28,007 nt of DNA from positions 1 through 28,007 of the IMG/VR virus record IMGVR_UViG_3300006844_000037; one strand, written 5' to 3'. Numbering within the stretch: the first letter of the stretch is position 1; each line of letters begins with the position of its first letter. Under the pieces are notes generated by a model. It was not told the DNA's origin, made no database searches, and saw only the letters and a list, made by a program, of their open reading frames with translations. The DNA comes from a virus. Of this stretch, positions 10,318-27,143 are shown in pieces. A program made the position numbers and the translations under genes.

Positions 10318-10354
10318 AAAAGGGGCCTATATCGGGCCCCTACATGGGCCCCTT
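10318..10354 (-). repeat. GGGGCCC hairpin (dispersed family member), terminator-like
   Basis: On the minus strand, AAGGGGCC (beginning within the stop codon of glycosyltransferase 2) pairs perfectly with GGCCCCTT, followed by TTG; the loop contains a further GGGGCCC. It matches 27109-27143 at both ends. Confidence 0.6.
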
Positions 10355-11246
10355 ACGCCGCCCTACTCTCCTCTTCCAACGCCTCCGCCGAGTGCTGCTC
10401 AATCGCCCTCAACACACTTTGCGCTTTCGCGAGCAGCCGCTCGTGCCTCGCATCGAGCTGATCTGTGACTCTTTCCGCCTGGAACTTCATCGTCCATAGC
10501 GGATCACGACAGCGCGCATTCCGCTGCTCAAACTCCTGCACCAGCGTATCCAATCGCTGGATGAGCTGATACTTGAGAAAAGCCGGAGAATCGCTGACCA
10601 GGATAATCTCCCTCGCCTTTTGCACCCTCGCCGGCCGCATCAGATCGAAGTAGAGCGCCCAAAAACTAATATCGCGTCGCGGCGTCATCGGTTCCTTTTG
10701 CGGATACCGCACCTCGACATCCAGATAGCAATCCCTCCCGATCATCCTGCTCATTTCCAAATTCCACGTATCATGCCACCAGAACGGGAAAAACGGCGCC
10801 ATGAAAAATCCATTGAGTTCAATAAACTTTTTGCTCAACATTTGGAACGCGGGCATTCCTGGCTCATTCCACTGCCGACCAAAGTTGACGCAGCCGATCC
10901 CATCCGGATAGTGTTCCGCTAATTGCGAAACGTTGACGTCCCACGCAATACTCTGGATGGCCAAATCGTCGACCCCCATGATGAACCAATCGGCGTCCTC
11001 GATTTGCGCTCCGACGCTTTGAACGCGATTGAACTTTGCTCCGAGCGAATCTTCTCTTGGCTCGCAACTCCAAATGACACGTTCGTCCTTTCGAAGCTTA
11101 GAATTCGCGTAAAGCTCTTGCTCATCCTCATCGATCCCTATGACGAATTTTGTATCCGGCAGCCTCGCCTTTTCCATCGACTCCCAAACCATGTCGTCGA
11201 GGTACTCCGGCTTACCCCTCGTCGGACAACAATACACGAGTCCCAT
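10353..11246 (-). CDS. Glycosyltransferase-like protein 2 (GT-A fold), 297 aa
   Basis: ATG 11246 is chosen because GGGAAGCGGAA precedes it; the frame is open upstream without a good site. The N-terminus MGLVYCCPTRGKPEYLD is a GT-A style first strand (pPTRgrp). Residues 34-41 (VIGIDEDE) and the candidate metal-binding VDDL at ~92-95 (DWFIMGVDDL) follow. FFPFWWHDTWNLEMSR (~153-168) resembles the acceptor-side end of GT2 enzymes, and the C-terminal third is helical. Donor and acceptor are unknown. It follows another glycosyltransferase, suggesting a paired modification of a virion or host glycan. A GGGGCCC hairpin starts at its stop codon. Confidence 0.75.
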   Translation of the reverse strand: MGLVYCCPTRGKPEYLDDMVWESMEKARLPDTKFVIGIDEDEQELYANSKLRKDERVIWSCEPREDSLGAKFNRVQSVGAQIEDADWFIMGVDDLAIQSIAWDVNVSQLAEHYPDGIGCVNFGRQWNEPGMPAFQMLSKKFIELNGFFMAPFFPFWWHDTWNLEMSRMIGRDCYLDVEVRYPQKEPMTPRRDISFWALYFDLMRPARVQKAREIILVSDSPAFLKYQLIQRLDTLVQEFEQRNARCRDPLWTMKFQAERVTDQLDARHERLLAKAQSVLRAIEQHSAEALEEESRAA

Positions 11247-11265
11247 TTCCGCTTCCCTTCCCTTT

Positions 11266-12216
11266 TTAAGCCTCCAGGCCCGCACCATTACCGGCCGAAC
11301 CTGGAGGCCGTTGGATCAACACGTTCTGTTGGTTTTCAGTTGTGCTTTCCTGTTGGGTAACGTTCCCGTTCGCTCGATCAACCACCTCCTTCCGCTTTTG
11401 CGCCTGAGCCTCCGCGTAGCCAGGAGGCAGATTCGCTCCAGTCACCGCCTGGATCGGGGATTGACCCTGCTTTTCTCCTTCATCGAGCAATTTTTGCTTC
11501 TTTTGAACAGCCAGCAATTCCCGTTTCTTGTAGGTCCCAAAGCACCCGATGAATGCCTTTTCCCCGACATGTCGAAACTTAAGCCAAGGATCGCACCATA
11601 CCCGACCGCCGATATGCCGCCACCGCTGACAGAATACGAAGTCCTCGCCCCAATACCTTCCCCTTTTATCATTCTCGTCACCAGGCACAAACATACAATC
11701 GAACACCGCCCAAGCGCTTTTTGGATTCCTCGAATCATCCAAGTATTCCCTGGCGCTATACGCCTCAATCATTTTCCGAATACAAGACTTGGTCAACCTC
11801 AAGAATCCCGTCGGAATGCTATCCACCTCGAGCAATCCATTCGTCGGATCGATTTGCGCCTGCCCCTTGGTCACATCCCAACGGAACAAATACTCCTCGC
11901 CCTCCCTCCGAATCGGATACAGCCCCCCAACGCACTCGACCGGATGCTGGAGCAACCGCTTGATCGCACCCTGTTCCCACCCCAAATCATCATCGACAAA
12001 GACCAGATCATCGTACTCGCGTTCAAAAGCCATCGCAAAAAGCGTATTGCGCGCCCTCGCCACCAGCGCGTCATTACACAGCGTTTCGACGTGAATCTGC
12101 GCCCCTAGCGCCGTAATCTCGCCAATCGCATTCATTAGCGAATGACTCGTCGCAATCGAGACCTTTTGACTATAACTCGGAATTGCGATGAAAACTGTGC
12201 GAGGCTTTTTCGACAC
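11266..12216 (-). CDS. Glycosyltransferase-like protein 1 (GT-A fold), 316 aa
   Basis: GTG 12216 (VSKKPRTVFIAIPSYSQ) is chosen because GGTGGAG lies 7 nt upstream. The frame extends to a TTG at 12267, but that codon sits inside a terminator-like hairpin. Motifs: N-terminal strand TVFIAIPSY, helix NDALVARARNTLFAMA, and an acidic VFVDDDLGW with DDD at residues 75-77 as the likely metal/nucleotide-sugar site. SIPTGFLRLTKSCI and YWGEDFVFCQRWRHIGG resemble the later GT2 motifs (ED acid/base). A C-terminal tail of ~70 residues is Gln/Glu-rich. It is likely a cytoplasmic sugar transferase; the substrate is unknown. Confidence 0.8.
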   Translation of the reverse strand: MSKKPRTVFIAIPSYSQKVSIATSHSLMNAIGEITALGAQIHVETLCNDALVARARNTLFAMAFEREYDDLVFVDDDLGWEQGAIKRLLQHPVECVGGLYPIRREGEEYLFRWDVTKGQAQIDPTNGLLEVDSIPTGFLRLTKSCIRKMIEAYSAREYLDDSRNPKSAWAVFDCMFVPGDENDKRGRYWGEDFVFCQRWRHIGGRVWCDPWLKFRHVGEKAFIGCFGTYKKRELLAVQKKQKLLDEGEKQGQSPIQAVTGANLPPGYAEAQAQKRKEVVDRANGNVTQQESTTENQQNVLIQRPPGSAGNGAGLEA

Positions 12217-22505: not shown

Positions 22506-22667
22506 TCAGCCGTGAATTGGAGGGCCGAAGGCTTTCCAGCCCAACAGCACCAGCAAGAGAAAGAGCAAAAATTTGCTCCCGACGGGACCGTAATTCGGCC
22601 AATTCCACCACAGGCCAAACACCAGCCAGAGCATCATTAGAATCCAAAAGGCGAGCCCGAGGGTCAT
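22506..22667 (-). CDS. Small two-helix membrane protein, 53 aa
   Basis: ATG 22667 has GGGAG 6 nt upstream and overlaps nothing; the frame is open earlier but without a site. Two membrane segments (LGLAFWILMMLWLVFGLWW, ~3-21; FLLFLLLVLLGWKAFG, ~33-48) are joined by NWPNYGPVGSK. This W-x-N-W-P-N-Y-G-P pattern recurs in tiny membrane proteins of many tailed phages. Holin-like activity is possible but a better-placed holin candidate sits in the lysis module at 7452-7796. Confidence 0.75.
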   Translation of the reverse strand: MTLGLAFWILMMLWLVFGLWWNWPNYGPVGSKFLLFLLLVLLGWKAFGPPIHG

Positions 22668-22668
22668 T

Positions 22669-22965
22669 TCACACTCCCGCGATGACGCTGATTTTGTAGC
22701 CGCGCCGCACGCCAAAGTATTCGGTCTGCCCCGCCCCCAGCTTGGTCATCGACGTTGTCGCCGTCGGGTCCTCGCCCACAGCAATATGGCAGGCAGACTC
22801 AGCATACAGCCGAATGAAGCGCGTCGAATTATTGAAGGCGGCAGACTTGACCTCGCTCCCAATTGCCAGCACCTGCTCGGCAATAGGCGGATATGCTGGA
22901 ACTTGGCCGACCATCCCACCAATGTTCGCCATGTCCGCAATTTCAGCAACGAGCGCATTGGCCAT
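22669..22965 (-). CDS. Conserved small phage protein, 98 aa
   Basis: ATG 22965 overlaps the nuclease stop as TAATG, which decides the start over an upstream TTG-type codon. Residues ~45-98 (FNNSTRFIRLYAESACHIAV; GEDPTATTSMTKLGAGQTEYF; then KISVI near the end) form a beta-rich pattern I recall from small structural genes of many phages. The N-terminal third is helical (VAEIADMANIGGMVGQ). A minor virion role is probable; no function is established. Confidence 0.75.
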   Translation of the reverse strand: MANALVAEIADMANIGGMVGQVPAYPPIAEQVLAIGSEVKSAAFNNSTRFIRLYAESACHIAVGEDPTATTSMTKLGAGQTEYFGVRRGYKISVIAGV

Positions 22966-25106: not shown

Positions 25107-25143
25107 CAAGGGGCCCATGCCGGGGGCCAACATGGCACCTTTT
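25107..25143. repeat. GGGGCCC hairpin (dispersed family member)
   Basis: AAGGGGCCCATG pairs imperfectly with CATGGCACCTT across a GC-rich loop, followed by TTTTCG. The core AAGGGGCCCATG is shared with the copies at 10318-10354 (minus) and 27109-27143. Confidence 0.55.
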
Positions 25144-25517: not shown

Positions 25518-25919
25518 ATGTTCCGCATCCCCCCCTTCCGCATCCCCGGCCTCGCCGCCGCATCCCCCCTCAAGCCCATCACCTGCCTCGTTTGCCAACG
25601 CGAATTTATGCCCCTCAAAGCAGAACAAATCTACTGCCACAAACGCTGTCGTGACAAAGCCTCCCGCCTTCGTGCCCGCAAGCGCCCCCCGGCCTACATT
25701 ACTCAACACGACGCAGCCGTCCACACTCAAGCCCTAGCAACAGCGTCAACCGCACCTGCCACTCCTATCGACGACGAAAAAGCCGCTGCCCTCCGCCTTT
25801 ACATGGACCAGCTACGAGCCGAACAAGAGCGCAAGGGCGCCCCAGAACCGACACCGACGCCGCCCCCATCGCAGTCCCACGTCGAAGAATCCATCCTCGA
25901 GAAGTGGAAAAAGGAGTAA
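25518..25919 (+). CDS. CxxC zinc-finger protein, 133 aa
   Basis: ATG 25518 follows a repeated AACAAGGAG, giving a site at ~7 nt. Cys23, Cys26, Cys40 and Cys44 (CLVCQREF ... YCHKRCRDKASRLRARKR) form a C-x2-C/C-x3-C zinc module followed at once by an Arg/Lys-rich helix, a common small DNA- or RNA-binding architecture. The middle (60-85) is Ala/Thr-rich. A helical stretch EKAAALRLYMDQLRAEQERK and a final VEESILEKWKKE follow a Pro-rich linker. First gene of the rightward set; regulatory role likely but target unknown. Confidence 0.8.
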   Translation: MFRIPPFRIPGLAAASPLKPITCLVCQREFMPLKAEQIYCHKRCRDKASRLRARKRPPAYITQHDAAVHTQALATASTAPATPIDDEKAAALRLYMDQLRAEQERKGAPEPTPTPPPSQSHVEESILEKWKKE

Positions 25920-25961
25920 AAGCGAGCCCGGGCCATGATCCGCGAGCCGAGCCGCGAGCCT

Positions 25962-26056
25962 TCAGCGTGCCACAAGCATCGAGTAACCCAACCTTCGATC
26001 AGCGTGCCACCATATTCTAGCAACCCACCTCCCATCAGCGTGCTATGAAGTCCTAG
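25962..26056 (+). repeat. Three imperfect ~36-bp leader repeats upstream of the IS110-like gene
   Basis: Copies begin at 25962, 25999 and 26035 (37- and 36-bp spacing). Each starts TCAGCGTGC and has C(T/G)AG at offset 18. The third leads straight into the ribosome-binding site of the next gene. A fourth degenerate copy begins at 27153 with the same offset. Confidence 0.7.
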
Positions 26057-26066
26057 GGAGCGACTA

Positions 26067-27026
26067 ATGACTGACCGAGACTCACAGATCACCGCCCTCC
26101 GCTGCATGGTCAGCGGGGCCTACGATCTCCAGATGCTTCGAATGCAGGCCGGTTTGCGCCTGTGCGCAAACTTCCGCGCCAAACTAGGCCTCATCAAGCC
26201 CGACCCGCAATCCGAGGCCGCCGAAGAGGAGGCCGAGAAGATCATTGACCGCATCCGTACCTCCTATCGAACACTCACAGAGGGCGTGGCACGGAACCGC
26301 ACCCTCCCCGAACGGGAGGGCTTCACCGGCGACGAGCTGATCTCCGACTACTCTGAGCTAGTCCTAACGAATCAGTTCTTCCAAATTGAGCGCCAGGAAC
26401 GCGTCCAGTTTCAACAGCTCCTCCTTCTTCTAGAGGGCATCCCCATCTACGATACTTACCTCTCCCAGGTCTACGGCATCGGCCCAGCTATGGCCGGAGT
26501 CCTCATCACCTACTTCAACCCCCACAAGGCCCGGCACATTTCTAGCTTCTGGAAGTACGCGGGGCTGGATGTGGCCGGGGGCAGCGGTCGGTCCCGCCGC
26601 AAGGAACACCTCGTCCAGCGCGAGTACACCACTGCCGCTGGCGACACCGCACTCCGCGACAGCGTCACCTACAACCCATTTCTCAAGTCCAAACTGATGG
26701 GAGTCCTCACCGGCGGGTTCATGCGGAAGGCCTCACCCTGGCGCGCCGTATACGATGACTACAAGAACCGCCTCGAGACCGATCCTGCCCGCGAGCGCTG
26801 CAGCACCAACGACTGGAAGAAACGCCGCAAGGCCGGGGAGGACGTCAGCCGCCTCTGGACGCCCGGTCGCATTAACAACGCTGCCAAGCGGTACATGGTC
26901 AAGATGTTTCTTGCGGAGTTCTGGGTCCGGTGGCGCACCCTCGAAGGCCTCCCCGTGACCGAGCCCTACGCAGTGGCCAAGCTCGGTCACTCATACCATG
27001 CGAGCGCCACGTCGAGCGCGCCATGA
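26067..27026 (+). CDS. IS110-type Tnp (Transposase_20) domain protein lacking an evident RuvC-like domain, 319 aa
   Basis: ATG 26067 has AGGGAG upstream. Residues ~1-130 are helical (TSYRTLTEGVARNRTL; LTNQFFQIERQERVQFQQ). From ~133 the sequence follows the IS110 Tnp pattern: helix-hairpin-helix QVYGIGPAMAGVLITYF (134-150), SFWKYAGLDV (160-169), GGSGRSRRKEH with Ser173 in the position of the family's conserved Ser-Gly, then ALRDSVTYNPFLKSKL and a final NNAAKRYMVKMFLAEFW. The DEDD RuvC-like N-terminal domain needed by full IS110 enzymes is not visible. I recall similar phage/plasmid proteins of unknown role. It may act in recombination or be a domesticated binder; mobility is not supported. Confidence 0.75.
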   Translation: MTDRDSQITALRCMVSGAYDLQMLRMQAGLRLCANFRAKLGLIKPDPQSEAAEEEAEKIIDRIRTSYRTLTEGVARNRTLPEREGFTGDELISDYSELVLTNQFFQIERQERVQFQQLLLLLEGIPIYDTYLSQVYGIGPAMAGVLITYFNPHKARHISSFWKYAGLDVAGGSGRSRRKEHLVQREYTTAAGDTALRDSVTYNPFLKSKLMGVLTGGFMRKASPWRAVYDDYKNRLETDPARERCSTNDWKKRRKAGEDVSRLWTPGRINNAAKRYMVKMFLAEFWVRWRTLEGLPVTEPYAVAKLGHSYHASATSSAP

Positions 27027-27062
27027 TCCTCGAGAGAGCGCGCCACTGAGTGTTTATAGATA

Positions 27063-27108: not shown

Positions 27109-27143
27109 AAAGGGGCCCATGTTGCATGGCAATATAGGCCCTT
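27109..27143 (+). repeat. GGGGCCC hairpin (dispersed family member)
   Basis: AAGGGGCCCATGT ... ATATAGGCCCTT matches the copy at 10318-10354 read on the minus strand at both ends, with a different centre. The arms pair with one bulge. Confidence 0.6.

What the first reader, a model, noticed from the sequence alone, without database searches (positions are those of the whole stretch)
26067..27026. IS110-type Tnp domain without the DEDD domain in a phage early region
IS110 recombinases pair a RuvC-like DEDD domain with a Tnp domain carrying a conserved serine, guided by a bridge RNA. This protein shows the Tnp signature (GIGPAMAG, AGLDV, GGSG with Ser173) but its N-terminal ~130 residues look helical and lack DEDD. 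It is flanked by 147- and 157-bp noncoding stretches with repeats and hairpins. It could be a domesticated recombination, replication or defence protein, possibly still RNA-binding.
Basis: partly seen in the sequence, partly recalled or inferred. Interest (0 to 1): 0.75.

Follow-up and report, generated by a model that had tools for sequence, protein, structure and literature searches.

The report
Phage TIGR-TasA with two-unit guide array
This phage gene encodes TasA, a nuclease-free RNA-guided DNA-binding protein of the TIGR-Tas systems described in 2025, and the 'repeats' just upstream are its short guide-RNA array; it is a new, unusually small example of a known kind, and its natural target remains unknown.

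Summary
The ORF at 26067-27026 is real (319 aa). It is not a crippled IS110 transposase. It is a Tas protein: NCBIfam TIGR_Tas_endo matches above its cutoff (112 vs 100 bits), and the AF2 model aligns with solved TasH and TasR (Z about 18) from the residue where their HNH or RuvC domain ends. With no nuclease domain it is TasA, a solo Nop domain. The 'noncoding stretch with repeats' upstream is a TIGR dual-repeat array at 25964-26045: three edge repeats, two loop repeats and 9-10-nt spacers with a 36-37-nt period. It scores 50.3 against at most 16.5 in shuffles. Over 60 loci with related tas genes carry the same array type (105 arrays, 1299 units). Their edge repeats covary exactly where a processed tigRNA would pair its ends. 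Two points are unusual: the array is minimal (two complete units; relatives mostly 5-81), with a repeat remnant downstream. I found no natural target above background. New member of a known kind; function beyond guided DNA binding is inferred.

The parts
26067..27026 (+). tasA: solo Nop-domain TIGR-associated protein, 319 aa, no nuclease domain
   Evidence: NCBIfam NF052498 112.2 bits, cutoff 100; AF2 model pLDDT 82.4; VIA Z 18.8 to TasH 9w04 and 18.1 to TasR 9mty
25964..26045 (+). TIGR dual-repeat array, two complete units, in the 5' leader of tasA
   Evidence: Chain score 50.3 with PWMs whose final training left out the window; maximum of 60 dinucleotide shuffles 16.5
25964..25972 (+). edge repeat 1 AGCGTGCCA
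25973..25981 (+). spacer A1 CAAGCATCG (9 nt)
   Evidence: sequence, register
25982..25990 (+). loop repeat 1 AGTAACCCA
25991..26000 (+). spacer B1 ACCTTCGATC (10 nt)
   Evidence: sequence, register
26001..26009 (+). edge repeat 2 AGCGTGCCA
26010..26018 (+). spacer A2 CCATATTCT (9 nt)
   Evidence: sequence, register
26019..26027 (+). loop repeat 2 AGCAACCCA
26028..26036 (+). spacer B2 CCTCCCATC (9 nt)
   Evidence: sequence, register
26037..26045 (+). terminal, diverged edge repeat AGCGTGCTA, followed closely by the tasA ribosome-binding region
   Evidence: sequence
25968..26004 (+). predicted tigRNA-1, 37 nt, cut in the middle of the edge repeats
   Evidence: inferred by analogy with the 36-nt processing in PMC12045711 and the +1-register covariation
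26005..26040 (+). predicted tigRNA-2, 36 nt
   Evidence: inferred as above
25930..25963 (+). possible degenerate first unit: truncated edge GGGCCA, spacer TGATCCGCG, loop-like AGCCGAGCC, spacer GCGAGCCTTC
   Evidence: not scored by the array model; its spacer is near-identical to the downstream remnant (family D13); tentative
27015..27045 (+). possible remnant of a downstream array: two edge repeats AGCGCGCCA (27015, 27037) without a loop repeat; the first encodes the last residues of TasA
   Evidence: edge scores 11.8 each; few such hits elsewhere in the window; relatives carry arrays starting at the tas stop codon

Best explanation
This is a TIGR-TasA system carried by a tailed phage. The array at 25964-26045 is transcribed with tasA. 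Its transcript is cut in the middle of each edge repeat into two ~36-nt tigRNAs. A TasA dimer binds each tigRNA through box D (AG) and box C (CCA) of the edge and loop repeats. Spacers A and B pair with opposite strands of an adjoining ~18-bp DNA site, which is opened and bent but not cut, because TasA has no nuclease. The most likely outcome is an RNA-guided roadblock on transcription or replication of other DNA, such as a competing mobile element or the host. Shown here: protein family, absence of a nuclease domain, array and register, covariation of the paired edge halves in relatives. Inferred from characterised relatives: processing, RNP formation, split-strand DNA binding. Speculative: the roadblock role and the target. 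The confidence given is for the identification as TIGR-TasA; for guided, non-cleaving DNA binding I would say 0.6, for the roadblock role 0.35.
For: NF052498 hit above cutoff. PHROG 4285, 3.6e-30. PDB sequence hits only to TasR 9mty (3e-12) and TasH 21kl (6.7e-9). Foldseek E<=0.001 hits are all TasH or TasR. VIA aligns model 1-310 to TasH 61-298 and model 5-299 to TasR 110-303, i.e. the protein starts where their nuclease domains end. Array score 50.3 vs shuffle maximum 16.5. The same array type flanks tas in nearly all relatives (105 arrays, 1299 units). Edge position 6 of repeat i pairs with position 3 of repeat i+1 (z 10.2), and 7 with 2 (z 8.2); other offsets give z -1.0 to 3.3, as expected if the two ends of one processed unit pair. 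TasA, TasH and TasR bound 36-nt tigRNAs in E. coli, and TasR and TasH target both strands (PMC12045711).
Against: Only two complete units, against mostly 5-81 in relatives, and an apparently decayed downstream array; the system could be dying. No target found: own-genome scan of 22 relatives and the window had no A+rc(B) match with 0-1 mismatch; IMG/VR scans returned about background numbers (wrong-orientation control). No expression data. No sigma-70-like promoter or rho-independent terminator was found at the array. For TasA itself, DNA binding was inferred in the paper, not shown.
Confidence: 0.93

Rival explanations
1. A domesticated IS110 transposase fragment that lost its DEDD domain and was repurposed.
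For: Transposase_20 motif at 130-180, 13.1 bits; fold similarity to IS621 (Z 13.1 over 174 residues); PHROG 4285 is labelled 'transposase'.
Against: The Tas model scores above cutoff while Transposase_20 is below its own; Tas structures match better (Z 18-19 vs 13); 76 family members share the DEDD-less form; Ser173 is not conserved; the RNA is a tandem-spacer array, not a single bridge RNA; no IS ends were noted.
Confidence: 0.04
2. A decaying, non-functional TIGR-TasA: the gene persists but the array has collapsed to two units and remnants.
For: Fewest complete units among the loci, together with the truncated contig L040; downstream edge repeats without loops and a degenerate first unit.
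Against: tasA is intact and keeps the nearly invariant family residues; both remaining units have intact boxes and paired edge halves; further arrays may lie outside this 28-kb fragment, as relatives have arrays several kb away.
Confidence: 0.2
3. TasA-tigRNA regulates the phage's own genes, or guides its own integrase or replication machinery, rather than acting on foreign DNA.
For: Faure et al. propose bending-assisted integration as one option; the array and tas sit in a phage genome.
Against: No near-exact split target (0-1 mismatch, gaps 0-2) in the own genome for about 530 units from 22 relatives and the window. This speaks against near-perfect self-targets only; several records were searched incompletely, and random expectation is also about zero.
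Confidence: 0.12

Closest known systems
TIGR-TasA with dual-repeat array (e.g. Flavonifractor plautii FpTIGR; Faure et al. 2025, PMC12045711)
   Same: Solo Nop domain, adjacent edge/loop array, 9-nt spacers, 36-nt period; phages are a usual setting
   Different: Only two complete units here (5-15 most often in the paper); box D is AG here, whereas TasR arrays have UG
TIGR-TasH of Salicola phage CGphi29 (PDB 21kl, 9w04 are TasH structures)
   Same: Nop core fold, Z 18.8 to 9w04; phage-borne
   Different: TasH has an N-terminal HNH nuclease absent here
TIGR-TasR (PDB 9mty)
   Same: Nop core fold, Z 18.1; tandem-spacer guides
   Different: TasR has an N-terminal RuvC nuclease absent here
IS110/IS621 bridge-RNA recombinase (PDB 8wt6)
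   Same: Nop-like RNA-binding part, Z 13.1 over 174 residues
   Different: No DEDD domain, no conserved Ser173, no bridge RNA or mobile element recognised
Box C/D snoRNP protein in the SSU processome (PDB 7mqa chain SB)
   Same: Nop-domain resemblance, weak here (Z 7.7)
   Different: Recruits fibrillarin for RNA methylation; K-turn guide RNA

Membership tests
TIGR-Tas (TasA) | Tas-type Nop-domain protein | tested here: met
   NF052498 above cutoff; Z 18-19 to TasH and TasR
TIGR-Tas (TasA) | Adjacent array of alternating edge and loop repeats (8-12 nt) with ~9-nt spacers | tested here: met
   25964-26045, score 50.3 vs shuffle maximum 16.5
TIGR-Tas (TasA) | Box C and box D shared by edge and loop repeats | tested here: met
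   AG...CCA in both edge and loop; edge-half covariation in +1 register in relatives
TIGR-Tas (TasA) | Multi-unit array (usually 5-15) | tested here: inconclusive
   Two complete units plus degenerate remnants; window is a fragment
TIGR-Tas (TasA) | No HNH or RuvC domain (defines TasA) | tested here: met
   Only Transposase_20 reaches E<=1 in Pfam; model starts at TasH residue 61 and TasR residue 110
TIGR-Tas (TasA) | Processing to 36-nt tigRNAs and RNP formation | not testable with these tools
   Needs small-RNA sequencing
TIGR-Tas (TasA) | Split-strand DNA targeting | tested here: inconclusive
   No target above background
IS110 transposase | N-terminal DEDD RuvC-like domain | tested here: not met
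   No Pfam hit; N-terminus helical and aligned with IS621 only from residue 122-124
IS110 transposase | Tnp domain above Pfam cutoff | tested here: not met
   13.1 bits, cutoff 21.3
IS110 transposase | Conserved catalytic serine | tested here: inconclusive
IS110 transposase | Bridge RNA with target and donor loops | tested here: inconclusive
   No Rfam match; the flanking RNA is a TIGR array

The most novel reading that the evidence does not exclude
A TIGR-TasA reduced to two fixed guides in the leader of its own gene, acting as a dedicated RNA-guided repressor of one or two conserved sites in the host or a rival phage instead of a broad, changing array.
Probability: 0.12. Interest if true: 0.6.

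Novelty: new member of a known kind. Interest (0 to 1): 0.33.

Why it matters
It resolves an 'orphan IS110 Tnp domain' into a complete RNA-guided system and shows that 'transposase' labels on such phage genes (e.g. PHROG 4285) can hide TIGR-Tas. Within-array covariation across 105 arrays independently supports, from sequence alone, the published processing and pairing model for the TasA branch. The two-guide locus is a small native system for asking what TasA does, an open question in the field.

Tried and rejected
Ser173 as a catalytic residue: rejected, S in 6 of 76. Targets in relatives' loci: A+rc(B) hits no more frequent than wrong-orientation or shuffled pairings. Self-targets in 22 relatives' records (most bases of each, one only in part) and the window: no match with 0-1 mismatch; 2-3 mismatch rates similar in all orientations. 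IMG/VR scans for both window targets: 2 hits (one exact, L104, one with a 1-nt gap, L103) and 11 hits to a shortened pattern, none with the full 19-nt site; the wrong-orientation control for the first also gave 2, so treated as background. Two units shared between related arrays: 4 and 0 hits. Conserved neighbours: apart from one small ORF (22509-22745, in L004-L007) only tas is shared with the tas loci. Csm3 hit in PADLOC, E 0.0038: weak, not pursued. Rfam and tRNA: nothing. Plasmids: no relative.

Full report
Observation. The ORF at 26067-27026 is intact and 319 aa long. Pfam sees only a sub-threshold Transposase_20 match at 130-180 (13.1 bits, cutoff 21.3) and no DEDD domain. NCBIfam assigns it to NF052498, TIGR-Tas RNA-guided endonuclease, at 112.2 bits against a cutoff of 100. 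PHROG 4285, labelled transposase, matches at 3.6e-30. The only PDB sequence hits are TasR 9mty and TasH 21kl.

Structure. The AlphaFold2 model (16-sequence alignment, pLDDT 82.4, pTM 0.76) matches TasH and TasR best (Foldseek E 3e-8 to 5e-5, all 11 hits below 0.001). VIA-align gives Z 18.8 to TasH 9w04, aligning model 1-310 with TasH 61-298, and Z 18.1 to TasR 9mty, aligning 5-299 with 110-303. IS621 aligns at Z 13.1 from its residue 124, and the SSU-processome Nop protein weakly (Z 7.7). The protein therefore starts about where the nuclease domain of each relative ends. By the naming of Faure et al. (PMC12045711) it is TasA, a solo Nop domain. The NCBIfam name says 'endonuclease', but this member has no nuclease domain.

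The array. Between the upstream gene and tasA lie AGCGTGCCA-CAAGCATCG-AGTAACCCA-ACCTTCGATC-AGCGTGCCA-CCATATTCT-AGCAACCCA-CCTCCCATC-AGCGTGCTA at 25964-26045. This is edge, spacer A, loop, spacer B, twice, with a period of 37 and 36 nt, as defined for TIGR arrays. The position weight matrices used for scoring were retrained on relatives without the window (the seed matrices had included it), and the chain scores 50.3; 60 dinucleotide shuffles of the whole 28-kb window, both strands, reach at most 16.5. The array ends just before the tasA ribosome-binding region, so array and gene are probably co-transcribed (inference).

Relatives. Searches of IMG/VR and GTDB genomes gave about 100 loci, many overlapping. 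Nearly all carry the same array type beside tas, upstream, downstream or both; five loci (L012, L015, L059, L089, L100) show none within the stretch held. After removing duplicates there are 105 arrays with 1299 units. The window and the truncated contig L040 have the fewest complete units, two; the rest have 5-81. Apart from tas and one small ORF, no window protein is shared with the tas loci, so tas appears to move between unrelated phages (inference).

Covariation. Repeats vary within arrays, so the pairing partner can be tested. With permutations within loci, edge position 6 of repeat i pairs with position 3 of repeat i+1 (95.6% vs 92.5% expected, z 10.2), and position 7 with position 2 (z 8.2). 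Offsets -2, -1, +2 and +3 give z between -1.0 and 1.3, and the same repeat gives 2.1 and 3.3. This is the pattern expected if the transcript is cut inside each edge repeat and the two ends of one tigRNA pair, as in the TasR structure. The array calls come from one scoring model, so mis-registered repeats add some noise. Related sequences are not independent; the permutation controls for locus, not for shared descent of units.

Catalytic serine. This speaks against IS110-type strand exchange through that residue. I did not verify its exact equivalence to the IS621 catalytic serine.

Remnants. Two copies of AGCGCGCCA at 27015 and 27037 overlap and follow the tasA end, without a loop repeat. The stretch CCATGATCC(G/T)CGAG occurs in both flanks, 25933-25946 and 27021-27034, and looks like one spacer in two degenerate units. 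In relatives the downstream array often starts at the tas stop codon. I read this as a collapsed downstream array and a degenerate first upstream unit; tentative.

Targets. From the reported 8-nt 3' overhangs and the C-5 rule I derive the target of a unit as spacer A followed by the reverse complement of spacer B. Across loci, such targets match no more often than wrong-orientation or shuffled controls. In the units' own phage records there was no match with 0-1 mismatch, gaps 0-2. IMG/VR scans for the window's two targets returned 2 and 11 stretches; the wrong-orientation control for the first returned 2. No natural target can be claimed, and near-perfect self-targeting is not supported.

Mechanism. 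Most likely TasA dimers loaded with these two tigRNAs bind split 18-19-bp DNA sites and bend them without cutting. Binding and bending are inferred from TasR and TasH. The consequence, probably a block of transcription or replication on foreign DNA, is a suggestion also made by Faure et al. and is untested.

Verdict. An ordinary-in-kind but unusually small phage TIGR-TasA locus. The family has been known since 2025.

Noticed in passing
window 25518-25919 +: Gene directly upstream of the array encodes a 133-aa protein with a weak NinG-like zinc-finger N-terminus (Pfam NinG E 2.6e-4, below cutoff).
   Followed up: no
window 25108-25141 and 27110-27143: Two copies of a 34-nt stretch starting AAGGGGCCCATG (71% identical) in two intergenic regions; possibly a shared regulatory element.
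   Followed up: no
L074, L093, L094, L095 and other pairs of tas loci: Arrays of related phages share some exact dual-spacer units while most others differ, and identical units recur within single arrays (e.g. L033, L044, L063): evidence of unit duplication and turnover without known adaptation genes.
   Followed up: partly
L018 downstream of tas: The ORF after tas and its array looks ParB-like from its sequence, as reported for some TasA loci (by eye only).
   Followed up: no
L003, L009, L010 tas stop codon: The 5'-truncated first edge repeat of the downstream array overlaps the tas stop codon (TAGCCA).
   Followed up: no
window 10353-11288 -: Glycosyltransferase-like gene among the phage structural genes (PHROG 14945, 1.8e-10).
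   Followed up: no
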